Assembly (NCBI GenBank): GCA_026001225.1
Contig: BNZQ01000007.1
Location: 1 to 57,144 of the forward strand
Source: Clostridia bacterium
Lineage (GTDB): Bacteria > Bacillota > Clostridia > Christensenellales > DUVY01
Length of the DNA: 57,144 nt
Reading direction: 5' to 3'
Of the stretch, positions 18,269-22,225 are shown one piece after another (positions within the stretch are counted from its first letter, which is position 1; each line of letters begins with the position of its first letter). The notes under the pieces are model-generated. The model had not been told where the DNA came from, did not search any database, and saw only the letters and a program-made list of their open reading frames with translations. Position numbers and translations under genes: made by a program.

Positions 18269-19072
18269 TCAAAGATTCAAACTGCACCGCCGGACATACA
18301 TCGACAGCATCCCGCGCAGCTTTTCGTTTTGCGAGCCCGACAGGGAATGCAGAATAAAATCGTTTTGGTTATAGGAATAATGCTTGTCCTTGGCGATAAT
18401 AATGTGATCGAGCAGCAGAATTTCAATCGCGGCCAAAGCGACGCAGGAATCCCGCGTGATCGCGTCGTCCTCGGCCGACGGCGTGGGATCGCCGCTGGGG
18501 TGGTTGTGTACGAGAATCACCTTGCTTGCGCCCTGCGTCATCGCGGTCTTGACGACCGTGCGGGTGTTGAGGGCCACGCTTTGGGGCATGTAATCCGTTT
18601 TGGTGTTGCTGTTGATGATCTTGTCGGCGGCGTCCAAACACATGATATAGACCATCTCATAATCCTCGTACATCATTTTGTTCTTGACGAAATCGAGGAC
18701 CTTCTGCGTCGTATTGATCACTTGCGGAATAGGCCCGTTCATCGAGGCGGGCAGCGTCTTGAACGCATGGTACATGACTGACAGATCGACCGCCGCCCGC
18801 GCCGTCATACCCTTGACCGCATCCAATTCGATGGGCGGGGCTTGCAGGACTTTGAGCAGGGAGCCGAATTTCTCGATCAGCCTGTGCGCGATCTCCGATG
18901 TGTTCAGCATCGGCGTGTTGCGGAACAACAGCATTTCCAACACCTCGTGGGGCGCGAAGCTTTCGAGGGACATGTGCGTCAGAAAGCGTTTGTACATTCT
19001 ATCGCGGTGCTCGCTGTGCAGATTGCTGGCTTCCGATTTATAGGGTTTTTTCACGGTGTCGTCCAATTTCAA
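18269..19072 (-). CDS. radC: RadC family JAMM protein
   Basis: RadC-like proteins have an N-terminal helix-hairpin-helix region and a C-terminal JAMM/MPN+ metalloprotease-like domain; their molecular role is unsettled. Here HNHPSGDPTPSAEDD gives the full JAMM zinc motif, preceded by ALNTRTVVKTAMTQGASKVILV. The helical part includes PHEVLEMLLF and KFGSLLKVLQAP. The open frame extends to 19405 but crosses the promoter at 19191-19219, so the true start is lower. TTG 19072 after AAAAAGGCGGA is the best candidate (267 residues); a GTG a little further in is the alternative. Confidence 0.9.
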   Translation of the reverse strand: MKLDDTVKKPYKSEASNLHSEHRDRMYKRFLTHMSLESFAPHEVLEMLLFRNTPMLNTSEIAHRLIEKFGSLLKVLQAPPIELDAVKGMTARAAVDLSVMYHAFKTLPASMNGPIPQVINTTQKVLDFVKNKMMYEDYEMVYIMCLDAADKIINSNTKTDYMPQSVALNTRTVVKTAMTQGASKVILVHNHPSGDPTPSAEDDAITRDSCVALAAIEILLLDHIIIAKDKHYSYNQNDFILHSLSGSQNEKLRGMLSMYVRRCSLNL

Positions 19073-19090
19073 TTCCGCCTTTTTAAGCGG

Positions 19091-19147
19091 GTGTCGTGCA
19101 AGTAACCGACGGCATACAGTTCTCGAACATTTACTTGCGTGACACTC
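19091..19147 (-). promoter_or_regulatory. Stem-loop in the radC leader
   Basis: Two 15-base arms (GTGTCGTGCAAGTAA and TTACTTGCGTGACAC) pair with two mismatches around a loop of about 25 bases. The loop holds a smaller dyad, GTTCTCGAAC. It lies between the radC promoter and the proposed start, so it is transcribed. It may be a regulatory hairpin or a paired protein-binding site. Confidence 0.55.
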
Positions 19148-19190
19148 GCGGTTTTTTGTGGTAAAATATAGAGGGTTTGAATTGTTATCT

Positions 19191-19219
19191 ATTATACAGA
19201 AAATCGTTCCTTTTGACAA
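19191..19219 (-). promoter_or_regulatory. Promoter of radC
   Basis: On the minus strand TTGTCA (19214-19219), a 17-bp spacer and TATAAT (19191-19196) are present. It fixes the transcript start near 19185 and rules out upstream start codons for radC. Confidence 0.82.
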
Positions 19220-19231
19220 GTATAATTGATT

Positions 19232-19300
19232 AAGGTTTTTGGAAAGAGCGCGAGAGAACCGTTTTATAAAAAAGTTCGCTCGCGCGGAATAAAGAATGCA
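19232..19300 (+). repeat. Start-proximal hairpin H1
   Basis: The element reads AAGGTTTTTGGAAAGAGCGC, then an inverted repeat GCGCGAGAGAAC / GTTCGCTCGCGC closing on a TTTTATAAAAAA loop, then GGAATAAAGAATGC. It ends 20 bases before the pepV GTG. It shares its layout with H2, H3 and H4. Confidence 0.75.
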
Positions 19301-19319
19301 AAGAAAAGGAAAATAAACC

Positions 19320-20816
19320 GTGGAGAAAACGACGCAGGCAATTTTAAAAGATTTACGCGAATTGGCGGCGATCCCCAGCGTAAAGGCCGCGCCCGTAAAG
19401 GGCAAACCGTTCGGGACGGAAATCGGCCGCGCTCTCGATTGGTTTTTGGAAAAGGGCCGCGCGTTCGGGCTGACCGCCTTGAACGCCGACGGGTACGCCG
19501 GACATTTGGAAATTCCCGGAAAGCCGGACGGAAAATTGGCGGGCGTGTTGGTGCATCTGGACGTCGTACCCGCCGCCGACGGGGGGTGGCCGACGCCGCC
19601 GTTTCATCCGAAAGAGATCGACGGCCGTTTGGTCGGGCGCGGCGTGACCGACGATAAGGGCGCGGCGGTCGTGCTGCTGCACGTTTTGAAAGCCGTCAAA
19701 GAGCGGGGCGCGCCGCTGAAAAATACGGTGCGGCTGATCGCGGGCTGCGACGAGGAAAGCGGTAGCGCGTGTGTCCGGCATTATTTTCAATCGCAGCCGA
19801 TGCCGGACTTCGGCTTTTCGCCGGACGCCGACTTTCCGCTGATCTTTGCCGAAAAGCACATTATACGTTTGCACATAACCTTAAAGAGCGCGGCGGCGGG
19901 GAAAGGGATCGGCCGGATTTTAGGGGATTTTACGGAAAACGTCGTGCCCGAATACGCGGGAGCGGAAATCAATAAGGGCAATATGCACAATGCACAATTC
20001 AAGGGGACAGGGGACAGGGGACAGGGAGTAGGGAACAGGGAACAGGGGACAGGGAACAGGGAACAGGGAAAGGATAGTGGTCAGTGGTCAGTGGTCAGTA
20101 GTCAGTTAGCGGACGATAGCAAGGGACAAGGGACAAGTGACGGGGGACAAGCAAAGGATAAGACCGATCATTGTGAATTGTGCCTTGTGAATTGTGAATG
20201 GGAAACCGTTCATTGCCACGGCAGGGCGGCGCACTCGATGGAGTGTTTTAAGGGCGATAACGCGCTGTGGAAGCTGTGCGCGGAACTGCGGAAACGGTTT
20301 CCGGACGACGCGGCTTTGGCGTTCATAGCGGATAAAATTTGCGGCGAGACCGACGGCAAGAAATTGGGGATTGCTTGCGACGACGGGATCAGCGGCGCGC
20401 TGACCTGTAATTTTTCGACGTTGAAGGTGAAAGCGGGCGCATTGGAATTGACGCTGGACGTCCGTTGCCCCGTGGGGAAGAGACCGGAGGAAATCGCGGA
20501 CGCCGTAAAGCGGGCCTTGCCCGAGGGCGGGACGCTGGAGGCGGGAATCAACAAGGGGTTCGCGCTGGAAAAGGACGATCCGATTCTTCGGGTTTTACTG
20601 GATTCGTACCGCAAGGTCACGGGCCGAGAGGACGGGCCGAAAGCGAGCGGCGGGGGAACCTACGCGCGGTATTTAAAGCGCGCCGCGGCTTTCGGGCCGA
20701 TGTTTGAAGGCACGGATTACAAAATCCACGCGGCGGGCGAAAACTTGCCCGTCGATGAGATCGGCAAGCTGTTTGAGATATATTATAACGCGGTACTCGG
20801 AATCGGGAATTTATAG
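19320..20816 (+). CDS. pepV: PepV-like M20 dipeptidase with in-frame repeat insert
   Basis: This is a zinc-dependent M20 peptidase of the PepV/dipeptidase group. Motifs are VLVHLDVVPA (metal His79), GRGVTDDKGAA, GCDEESGS (catalytic Glu pair), FSPDADFPL and the C-terminal GGGTYAR. Start GTG 19320 follows AAAGGA by nine bases. Residues about 221-297 (NKGNMHNAQF to CELCLVNCEWE) are not family sequence. They are the translation of a composite heptamer repeat inserted in frame, in the loop before VHCHGRAAHS of the lid domain. Without it the length is about 420. The insert keeps the frame open, so the enzyme may remain active. Confidence 0.88.
   Translation: MEKTTQAILKDLRELAAIPSVKAAPVKGKPFGTEIGRALDWFLEKGRAFGLTALNADGYAGHLEIPGKPDGKLAGVLVHLDVVPAADGGWPTPPFHPKEIDGRLVGRGVTDDKGAAVVLLHVLKAVKERGAPLKNTVRLIAGCDEESGSACVRHYFQSQPMPDFGFSPDADFPLIFAEKHIIRLHITLKSAAAGKGIGRILGDFTENVVPEYAGAEINKGNMHNAQFKGTGDRGQGVGNREQGTGNREQGKDSGQWSVVSSQLADDSKGQGTSDGGQAKDKTDHCELCLVNCEWETVHCHGRAAHSMECFKGDNALWKLCAELRKRFPDDAALAFIADKICGETDGKKLGIACDDGISGALTCNFSTLKVKAGALELTLDVRCPVGKRPEEIADAVKRALPEGGTLEAGINKGFALEKDDPILRVLLDSYRKVTGREDGPKASGGGTYARYLKRAAAFGPMFEGTDYKIHAAGENLPVDEIGKLFEIYYNAVLGIGNL
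19981..20208 (+). repeat. Composite heptamer element inside pepV
   Basis: In order: ATGCACA units, a run of GGGGACA/GGGAACA units, GTGGTCA units, a unique 52-bp segment (20109-20160), then GTGAATT/GTGCCTT units that are inverted relative to the first. Its length is a multiple of three and it is open in the pepV frame, giving a periodic peptide of GNREQGT type. The 52-bp segment is identical to 20915-20966 on the other strand. Confidence 0.9.
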
Positions 20817-21566
20817 GGCCGAAGAACCTCCGTCGTCTTTCGGCGGCGGAGATTCTTCACTCACGGAAGAATGACACTCCTTTAACTGACCGCTGACCAT
20901 TGACCACTGACCACTATCCTTTGCTTGTCCCCCGTCACTTGTCCCTTGTCCCTTGCTATCGTCCGCTGACTGACCACTGACCACTGACCACTGACCATTG
21001 TCGGATTGCGCGCCGTCCTTGCCGCCCGTTGCTTTTAGATACGCCTTGACGCCCGCATACAACGGCAGCCCCAAGCCGTAAACGGCGAGGCTTTGTCCGA
21101 TCGCAAGCGAGAGAAAGCCCGATAGGTAGATCAGGAACGGGGCGGAAACGGCAATGCCGATGCTCTCCAGATCGCCGCCGATATAGGCGAAGATGATCAG
21201 GGGGACGATCAAGGCGTTGACCAACACGGGCGGAACCGCCGCCAAACAGATATGCTTTTTCAAGCGGCAACCGATCAGGTAGGTGAGAAAAGCCGCGATT
21301 AGGGTCGCCAACGTGCCGAATACCATGTCCGTCCACATACCCGTGAAGACGTTGCTGATCAAGCACCCGATTGTGACGCCGATCACCGCTTCGGGCAGGA
21401 GAGCGGGCAGGATCGTGAACGCTTCCGCAAAGCGCAGCTGAATCGGCCCGTAAGAAAGGGGCGCGGCGAGAATCGTGATCACGGAGTAGAGGGCGGCGAT
21501 CACGGCGGCGCGGGTCATTTGCTTGATATTCAAGCGGACGAGAGGGGAAAAGAAAGATTTGAACAT
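20811..21566 (-). CDS. queT: QueT family transporter with repeat-derived tail
   Basis: This is a QueT-type integral membrane protein, the substrate-binding (S) subunit of an ECF importer for queuosine precursors. The core has the family sequence APLSYGPIQLRFAEAFTILP, GCLISNVFTGMWTDMVFG and TLATLIAAFLTYL, with about six helices. AGGAGG lies eight bases before the ATG. The family usually ends near residue 185. Here about 65 more residues follow (GQWSVVSGQSADDSKGQGTS onward), encoded entirely by heptamer repeats. This tail contains the same peptide, ADDSKGQGTSDGGQAKD, as the PepV insert. The gene ends convergently with pepV, overlapping its last codons. Confidence 0.9.
   Translation of the reverse strand: MFKSFFSPLVRLNIKQMTRAAVIAALYSVITILAAPLSYGPIQLRFAEAFTILPALLPEAVIGVTIGCLISNVFTGMWTDMVFGTLATLIAAFLTYLIGCRLKKHICLAAVPPVLVNALIVPLIIFAYIGGDLESIGIAVSAPFLIYLSGFLSLAIGQSLAVYGLGLPLYAGVKAYLKATGGKDGAQSDNGQWSVVSGQSADDSKGQGTSDGGQAKDSGQWSMVSGQLKECHSSVSEESPPPKDDGGSSAL
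20845..21003 (-). repeat. Composite heptamer element forming the queT 3' end
   Basis: TGACCAC-type arrays (20886-20914 and 20967-21003) flank the 52-bp segment 20915-20966, identical in inverse orientation to 20109-20160. Next to it, 20847-20875 holds a GATTCTTC/GGAAGAAT hairpin followed by GACAC, similar to the core of the element at 12700-12852. Confidence 0.9.
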
Positions 21567-21585
21567 GAAAGGGACCTCCTGTTTT

Positions 21586-21656
21586 TATTCAAAAAAGAAA
21601 TAGGATAGATTTATTTCTTTTTCCTGCGGGTTTTCAGGCACCGCATGAATCATGGT
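21586..21656 (-). promoter_or_regulatory. Structured leader before queT, possible preQ1 sensor
   Basis: On the minus strand, between the aroK stop and the queT ribosome site, there is a hairpin TGCGG / CCGCA with an 11-base loop. It is followed by an A-rich tail (GGAAAAAGAAAT). QueT genes are often controlled by preQ1 riboswitches, and a short stem plus A-rich tail is their general plan. The loop does not match the class I consensus that I know, so this is only a candidate. Confidence 0.3.
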
Positions 21657-21685
21657 AACTGATAAATGACGTCGGTCGTTTATTT

Positions 21686-22225
21686 TTACTTATAGAACTT
21701 GATGATCTCCTCCTGAATCCTTTCGACGGTTTCCGCCACCGAAAGGCCGGTGTTGTCCACGACGATATCGGCGTATTTTTCGTATCGTTCCCGCCGCCGA
21801 TCCGCGAGTTGTTTCAGCTTGCGCGCTTTGAAAAAGCCCTGCAACAGCGGACGGTTTTTGTCGCGCTTTAAGCGGCCCGCAAGCTCCTTCGGATTGCAGG
21901 TCAAAAGGATGATCAGTCCGTACCGCTTCAATTTTTCCATGTTGTCGTCACGCTCCGGCACGCCGCCGCCCGTCGCGATGACGGTGTTCTCGAAGTAGTA
22001 AACGCGGTCCACAATCTTTGCCTCGAGGTCGCGGAAAGCGTCCTCGCCGTATTGTTTGAAGCATTCGGCAATCTTCATGCCGTACTCGAACTCGAAAAAG
22101 GCGTCCGTGTCCATGAAGTGCATTTCCAAACGGTCGGCAAGGAGTTTGCCCGCCGAGGTCTTGTACGTCCCCATCATGCCGATCAAGACGATATTGGTGA
22201 TTAAAACTTTATTTGTTCCGCTCAT
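21686..22225 (-). CDS. aroK: Shikimate kinase with unusual P-loop
   Basis: Shikimate kinase phosphorylates shikimate in the chorismate pathway. The 179-residue protein starts at ATG 22225, five bases after AAAGGA. It has the MDTD metal/substrate motif (residues 38-41), the ATGGGVP substrate motif and the lid RDKNRPLL. The Walker A motif is GMMGTYKT (16-23). The Gly before the P-loop Lys, nearly invariant in this family, is Tyr here, encoded by an unambiguous TAC. It is in one direction with aroQ and aroE, forming a shikimate gene group. Confidence 0.9.
   Translation of the reverse strand: MSGTNKVLITNIVLIGMMGTYKTSAGKLLADRLEMHFMDTDAFFEFEYGMKIAECFKQYGEDAFRDLEAKIVDRVYYFENTVIATGGGVPERDDNMEKLKRYGLIILLTCNPKELAGRLKRDKNRPLLQGFFKARKLKQLADRRRERYEKYADIVVDNTGLSVAETVERIQEEIIKFYK

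What the first reader, a model, noticed from the sequence alone, without database searches (positions are those of the whole stretch)
19981..21003. The same repeat-derived peptide inserted in frame into pepV and queT
Segment 20109-20160 and the reverse complement of 20915-20966 are identical over 52 bp. The first lies inside pepV, the second inside the 3' end of queT on the opposite strand. Both are read in the same phase, so both proteins contain ADDSKGQGTSDGGQAKD, flanked by GQWSVVS-type heptad peptides. Arrays of 7-bp units read in any phase give a 7-residue period, so they tend to remain open. The PepV insert is about 77 residues in the lid domain; the QueT tail is about 65 residues beyond the normal end. 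This looks like recent movement of a repeat that tolerates, or is selected for, coding neutrality.
Basis: partly seen in the sequence, partly recalled or inferred. Interest (0 to 1): 0.85.

Follow-up and report, generated by a model that had tools for sequence, protein, structure and literature searches.

The report
Reading-frame-compatible repeats inside housekeeping proteins
An uncultured Clostridia-type bacterium carries patchworks of 7-base repeats inside a number of its housekeeping enzymes, nearly always in an orientation and reading phase that keeps the protein readable, and the pair noticed here looks like one recent copying event within that family.

Summary
20109-20160 and the reverse complement of 20915-20966 are identical (53 bp with one flanking base), in the same phase of pepV and queT, giving ADDSKGQGTSDGGQAKD in both. 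The pair is one case of a genome-wide family: mosaics of 7-bp arrays and short linkers in frame inside housekeeping genes (dxs, era, obg, mnmA, mnmE, coaBC, murG and others). Sense copies of the linkers sit in one phase (18 of 18, 11 of 11, 11 of 11, 9 of 9, 8 of 8). One end module has 22 places genome-wide: 20 in a sense ORF, 19 of these in one phase. The pepV site is old: a congener and a third lineage carry heptad-type inserts at the same point with different words; 7 of 8 other aligned relatives have an empty site. Both dxs sites are shared with the congener too. So insertion into pepV is not recent; copying of the 53-bp module probably is. Best reading: selfish, coding-compatible repeats that work like Rickettsia palindromic elements but are built of replaceable heptad arrays and match no such family by sequence. 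How the words are replaced is unknown. No expression data.

The parts
19320..20816 (+). pepV, M20 (Sapep/PepV-like) dipeptidase with a repeat-derived insert; GTG start
   Evidence: TIGR01887 E 9.8e-99, 331.5 bits against cut-off 207.95; Pfam Peptidase_M20
19984..20000 (+). left arm of the pepV insert, TGCACAATGCACAATTC (heptad CACAATG)
   Evidence: sequence; pairs with the right arm in the minimum-energy RNA fold, though not in the centroid
20002..20070 (+). AGGGAAC/AGGGGAC array, 9.9 units
20076..20106 (+). AGTGGTC array, 4.4 units; reads a GQWSVVS-type heptapeptide in any phase of this strand
20109..20160 (+). 52-nt segment shared with queT; reads ADDSKGQGTSDGGQAKD plus one base
20169..20200 (+). 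right arm of the pepV insert, CATTGTGAATTGTGCCTTGTGAATTGTGAATG, inverted relative to the left arm
   Evidence: sequence, minimum-energy fold
20811..21566 (-). queT, QueT-family protein with a repeat-derived C-terminal tail (about residues 180-251)
   Evidence: Pfam QueT PF06177 at residues 17-173, E 2.5e-37
20849..20877 (-). GTGTCATTCTTCCGTGAGTGAAGAATCTC linker (peptide CHSSVSEES), also in other host genes; part of a 43-nt exact match to the obg insert
20885..20915 (-). AGTGGTC-type array in the queT tail
20915..20966 (-). 52-nt segment shared with pepV
20969..20997 (-). AGTGGTC array, 4.1 exact units

Best explanation
The two segments belong to a genome-wide family of dispersed composite repeats: heptad arrays of a few words (AATGCAC, AGTGGTC, AGGGAAC, AAGGGAC) joined by short linkers, several of them bounded by inverted heptad arrays. 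They sit inside protein genes as in-frame segments, predicted disordered in the one case modelled. Shown: most in-gene arrays lie in one orientation and the linkers lie in one phase; hosts are conserved housekeeping enzymes; several sites are shared with a congener while the words differ. Inferred: they are translated; they insert like a non-autonomous, hairpin-forming (MITE-like) element; copies that break a gene are lost; the survivors are nearly neutral baggage in loops, tails and between domains; inside old sites the repeat content turns over by slippage and by copying or conversion between inserts. The pepV/queT identity is one such recent copy, between two inserts about 0.75 kb apart on opposite strands. 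The peptide itself most likely has no specific function.
For: Phase, in called genes of the 667-kb sample, sense copies: AATTAAAGGA one phase in 18 of 18, AGTTAAAGGA 11 of 11, GAAGAATCCC 11 of 11, GTGTCATTCT 9 of 9, AAAGGACGAT 8 of 8, ACAAGTAAAGGA 5 of 5, AAAGGATAAG 12 of 13; CAGGTATCGG 7 and 2. Genome-wide: AATGCACAATGCACAATTAAAGGA with up to 3 mismatches has 22 places, 20 in a sense ORF, 19 of these in one phase; AGGGAAC x3 with up to 1 mismatch has 16 distinct arrays, 14 of them sense in ORFs of 214 aa or more. AGGGAAC, AAGGGAC and AATGCAC arrays: 50 of 51 in genes; AAAACTG/AAAAGTG arrays: 44 of 57 intergenic, 12 at ORF 5' edges, 1 inside a gene. Hosts: 29 of the 30 ORFs sent had a Pfam family. 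Shared sites with different words: pepV, both dxs sites and one coaBC site. Loop: PepV 223-290 has pLDDT under 50, between strands 212-218 and 294-300. Insert RNA: minimum-energy fold -53.1 kcal/mol with the ends paired, z -2.99, 1 of 200 shuffles as good. The two copies share base differences from the other genomic copies.
Against: No expression, proteome or read data. No close strain with an exactly empty pepV or queT site, so no target-site duplication could be read, and no transposase was looked for. Some arrays lie antisense in genes or outside them: AGTGGTC 18 of 41 intergenic and 2 antisense; AAGGGAC 4 of 16 antisense; AATGCAC-type 7 of 20 antisense (expected for right arms); AGGGAAC 1 of 15 antisense; in 8 of 82 in-gene arrays the main word has a stop in the sense direction. 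The arm pairing is absent from the centroid fold. In G001 most arrays are intergenic (104 of 129 arrays, its AATGCAC arrays 6 of 6), and 9 of 80 clusters there lie in a long spanning ORF, so the coding bias of this word is not general to the genus. A neutral element filtered by selection should be commoner between genes than inside them; for the coding set the opposite holds and is unexplained. The G000 sample was partly chosen by array hits; among 17 stretches that are the first 20 kb of their contig, 8 of 234 genes carry an internal array.
Confidence: 0.77

Rival explanations
1. A recent, single transposition put the same repeat into pepV and queT.
For: 53 nt identical, against at most about 91% to the other copies over 40 nt or more.
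Against: The pepV site carries heptad-type inserts in three lineages with different words; the identical part is an inner module and not the whole insert.
Confidence: 0.12
2. The heptad arrays are phase-variable contingency tracts that switch the host genes on and off by slippage.
For: Heptanucleotide tracts can be phase-variable in other bacteria (recalled; a neuO paper was seen only in the listing); one unit shifts the frame by one.
Against: Hosts are housekeeping genes; 20 of 22 end modules and 14 of 16 AGGGAAC arrays lie in sense ORFs, not about one third; several arrays per insert.
Confidence: 0.04
3. The insert is removed, as an RNA intron, an intein or a segment bypassed by the ribosome.
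For: Inverted arms bring the ends together in the minimum-energy RNA fold.
Against: A removed segment need not be in frame or free of stops, but these are; no Pfam or NCBIfam family is found in the insert.
Confidence: 0.05
4. The insert peptides were recruited for a function (binding, localisation, regulation).
For: Copies are retained in housekeeping enzymes and at the same sites in a congener.
Against: Sequence and length differ widely between congeners at the same site; predicted disorder in PepV; the pepV insert matched only itself in the protein collection at that search's sensitivity.
Confidence: 0.05
5. Assembly artefact: short reads joined wrongly at repeats.
For: Fragmented draft genome (230 contigs, 78% complete); a congener contig ends in obg just where this genome has its insert.
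Against: A separate record (JAISFM) has an insert at the same pepV site; frames are kept in many genes.
Confidence: 0.04

Closest known systems
Rickettsia palindromic elements (RPE) and the similar coding palindromes of Wolbachia and Methanocaldococcus
   Same: Dispersed repeats in frame inside unrelated housekeeping genes, typically in non-structured segments, with some families coding and others not (passages of PMC10969869, PMC2996958 and PMC6649704; the Ogata papers they cite were not read).
   Different: Here the body is heptad arrays plus linkers, mosaic and variable in length, with words that differ between congeners at the same site; no match to any NCBIfam or Pfam model.
Bacterial heptamer repeats (TAACTGA repeats of Beggiatoaceae, Cyanobacteria and Bacteroidetes; cyanobacterial STRR, recalled; GGGAATC-type repeats of Xanthomonas and Nostoc)
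   Same: Tandem 7-mers, many short arrays per genome, some inside ORFs as 7-residue peptides, words mixed in some species, no evident mechanism of spread (MacGregor 2015, PMC4679880: abstract and sections 10 and 15 read; PMC4692102: passages).
   Different: Those are mainly intergenic, and in proteins mostly peripheral; here a coding set lies in the middle of many conserved enzymes, with linkers in one phase.
MITEs
   Same: Short, dispersed, no own protein, inverted ends in several copies.
   Different: No target-site duplication or partner transposase was shown; the ends are heptad arrays whose word changes.

Membership tests
Rickettsia palindromic elements | In-frame presence inside unrelated conserved genes | tested here: met
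Rickettsia palindromic elements | One preferred reading frame of the repeat | tested here: met
   19 of 20 sense end modules in one phase; linkers
Rickettsia palindromic elements | Sequence match to a described RPE family | tested here: not met
   No NCBIfam or Pfam match for the pepV insert or the queT tail up to E 1; that these libraries hold RPE models is recalled and was not checked
Rickettsia palindromic elements | Palindromic element of about 150 bp | tested here: inconclusive
   Inverted heptad arms and an end-paired minimum-energy fold in pepV, but length and content vary widely between sites
Bacterial heptamer (STRR-type) repeats | Tandem 7-mers at many places in the genome | tested here: met
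Bacterial heptamer (STRR-type) repeats | Mainly intergenic | tested here: not met
   Three coding words 50 of 51 in genes; AAAACTG/AAAAGTG mainly intergenic; in the congener mainly intergenic
MITE | Terminal inverted repeats | tested here: inconclusive
   Inverted heptad arms seen at several inserts; not counted for all
MITE | Target-site duplication | not testable with these tools
   No close strain with an empty site was found
MITE | Partner transposase in the genome | not tested
   Not searched
Intein | Protein-splicing domain in the insert | tested here: not met
   No family in the pepV insert or queT tail

The most novel reading that the evidence does not exclude
A cellular activity writes heptad arrays: elements whose two inverted ends are replaceable heptad arrays, with both ends rewritten together, so that one element core or one gene site carries different but matched words in different copies and species. 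In G001 one intergenic element core occurs with many heptad words, and the two ends match each other more than when shuffled among copies (16 of 26 matched against a shuffled mean of 7.2; none of 2000 shuffles reached the observed score of shared 7-mers).
Probability: 0.25. Interest if true: 0.85.

Novelty: new variant of a known kind. Interest (0 to 1): 0.62.

Why it matters
It extends selfish, in-frame repeats (reported for Rickettsia, Wolbachia and one archaeon in the passages read) to an uncultured Clostridia-type lineage, and joins them to bacterial heptamer repeats, for which MacGregor 2015 saw no evident mechanism of transfer. Shared sites with changed words give a natural experiment on how such arrays are rewritten and how enzymes take up new loops.

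Tried and rejected
Tried without result: Rfam scan of 19000-22000 with E up to 0.1 gave no match; a protein search with the insert region alone found only this protein, among 64 candidates, so the vocabulary could not be traced further; Pfam and NCBIfam on the insert pieces gave nothing up to E 1. The MAFFT alignments of CoaBC (first try), Obg and MurG picked wrong ORFs for some relatives, and that output was cut; CoaBC was redone, and for Obg and MurG only the tables are used. In one search four rows for places near contig ends (L234, L235, L242, L275) had been read at a neighbouring match; redid all 51 places at their exact positions and the totals stayed the same. In G000 the matched-ends test was negative (11 cores, 7 matched, shuffled mean 7.0, p 0.62); nearly all copies there carry one word. 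mnmA and murG had no orthologue in G001. Rejected: phase variation, intein or intron, and assembly artefact, for the reasons given under the rivals. The AlphaFold model rests on 11 sequences (mean pLDDT 77.3).

Papers: PMC4679880 abstract and sections 10 and 15 read; PMC10969869, PMC2996958, PMC6649704 and PMC4692102 passages only; all others seen in search listings only. I saw no report of such inserts in Clostridia in the listings; the library holds open-licence papers only.

Full report
What was checked. The 52-nt identity, the phase and the shared peptide are real; with one more base the exact match is 53 nt. PepV is an M20 dipeptidase and QueT has its Pfam domain at residues 17-173. Lag-7 arrays are a special feature of this genome: 76 in 667 kb, against at most 3 for any other lag from 4 to 13. 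In 56 loci (189 kb) of relatives outside the genus, all around pepV or queT homologues, there are none.

The wider family. The genome (2.19 Mb, 230 contigs, 78% complete) holds 77 matches to AGTGGTC x3 with up to 2 mismatches, overlapping ones counted. In the sample, 111 clusters of arrays were found. Two sets stand out. One uses AAAACTG and AAAAGTG and lies mainly between genes (44 of 57 arrays intergenic, 12 near ORF 5' edges, 1 inside a gene). The other uses AGGGAAC, AAGGGAC and AATGCAC and lies in genes (50 of 51; 38 sense, 12 antisense). AGTGGTC is in both (23 of 41 in genes, 21 of those sense). Twenty further arrays have other words. The sample was partly chosen by array hits: in the whole of it 37 of 462 called genes hold an internal array, and in 17 stretches that are the first 20 kb of their contig 8 of 234 do; the latter is not a clean random sample either, since other contigs of the same rank were taken at their hits.

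The frame filter. Arrays are spread over the phases, but the linkers between them are not. In called genes, sense copies lie in one phase in 18 of 18, 11 of 11, 11 of 11, 9 of 9, 8 of 8, 5 of 5 and 12 of 13 cases for seven linkers; an eighth, CAGGTATCGG, is in two phases (7 and 2). Antisense copies of the eight number 6. Of six linker forms and variants from 16 to 28 nt that I tested, four are open in one frame of their strand and two in two frames; the pepV insert and the queT tail as wholes are open in one frame only. Two genome-wide searches not tied to the sample agree: 20 of 22 places of the end module are in a sense ORF (one of them with a poor coding score) and 19 of 20 in one phase; of 16 distinct AGGGAAC arrays 14 are sense in ORFs, 1 is antisense in a long ORF, and 1 lies over a short ORF of negative coding score, taken as non-coding.

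The hosts. I sent 30 of the 49 ORFs that hold or touch an array to Pfam, and 29 had a family: among them DnaX, radical-SAM proteins (one YgiQ-like), a metalloenzyme of phosphopentomutase type, U32 peptidase, phosphoglucomutase, a two-domain ABC ATPase, CoaBC, GH94, MnmA, IspDF, YbeY, Era, DXS, MurG, Obg, MnmE, a UvrD-like helicase-nuclease and glutamate synthase (short names are my reading of the Pfam hits). Many inserts lie between Pfam domains, as in CoaBC, MnmA, DXS and Obg; others lie inside one, as in U32 and MnmE. In PepV the insert is a predicted disordered loop (residues 223-290) between two strands.

Age. G001, the only other genome of the genus among the 60 relatives searched, has the same PepV as P0004 of JAISFM010000287.1, titled Clostridiales bacterium isolate Gx485_bin36. 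It has an insert at the same point of PepV, with words ACAGTCC and AATTCTC. P0005 has one too, with peptides such as DKGQMTN, which I read as heptad-coded; its DNA was not seen. P0006-P0009 and P0011-P0013 have none; P0010 has a different segment there. DXS has inserts at the same two points in G000 and G001 and none in G002-G005. CoaBC shares one point and has a second full insert only in G001. At the first DXS site both arms differ between the species: AATGCAC with its complement in G000, ACAGTCC-type with its complement in G001. QueT of G001 has a short tail in which I see no heptads; P0124 has a heptad-like tail.

Hence the reading. Sites are old and content is young. The pepV and queT copies share base differences from the other copies of the module, whose identity is at most about 91% over 40 nt or more, so one was copied from the other or both from a lost copy, recently. 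Copying between inserts 0.75 kb apart fits gene conversion or template switching; this step is inferred. The insertion itself is inferred to be MITE-like from the inverted arms and the end-paired minimum-energy fold, which the centroid fold does not show; no footprint or enzyme was seen.

A puzzle and a lead. Neutral repeats should be commoner outside genes than inside, and the coding set is not. In G001 the arrays are mostly intergenic (104 of 129), and stop-free words lie there too, so the partition seen in G000 is not a rule of the genus. In G001 an intergenic element core related to that of G000 carries many different heptad words, and its two ends match each other far more than when shuffled (some copies are neighbours or tandem, so not all are independent; the same test was negative in G000). 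This suggests that both ends change together, and nothing in the passages I read explains it.

Limits.

Noticed in passing
window:142-293 and about 9389; L054:2644-2957; L063:2075-2276; L168, L174, L188, L200 (G001): An intergenic MITE-like element with a related core (GTCGGCGGGTAAGGAACGTAAAGCATAATAAAAG...) in both species, flanked by heptad arrays whose word differs between species and, in G001, between copies; there the two ends match each other within copies more than by chance.
   Followed up: partly
L081 (G000 contig 110), 569-3355, minus strand: A UvrD-like helicase/nuclease ORF of at least 929 aa, running to the contig end, with ten heptad arrays in five clusters.
   Followed up: partly
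L071:2096-10168: Two neighbouring GH94-type ORFs (1857 and 798 aa) each with several repeat inserts; the 1857-aa ORF also ends in an array.
   Followed up: no
L056:3918-5351: A metalloenzyme-superfamily ORF holds the one AGGGAAC array found antisense within a long ORF.
   Followed up: no
L219 (G001 contig 116): The obg contig of the congener ends about where this genome has its obg insert, as if a repeat there broke the assembly.
   Followed up: no
P0124: QueT of another lineage ends in a 7-residue repeat (NDEMQET) tail, so the queT tail may be a recurrent landing place.
   Followed up: no
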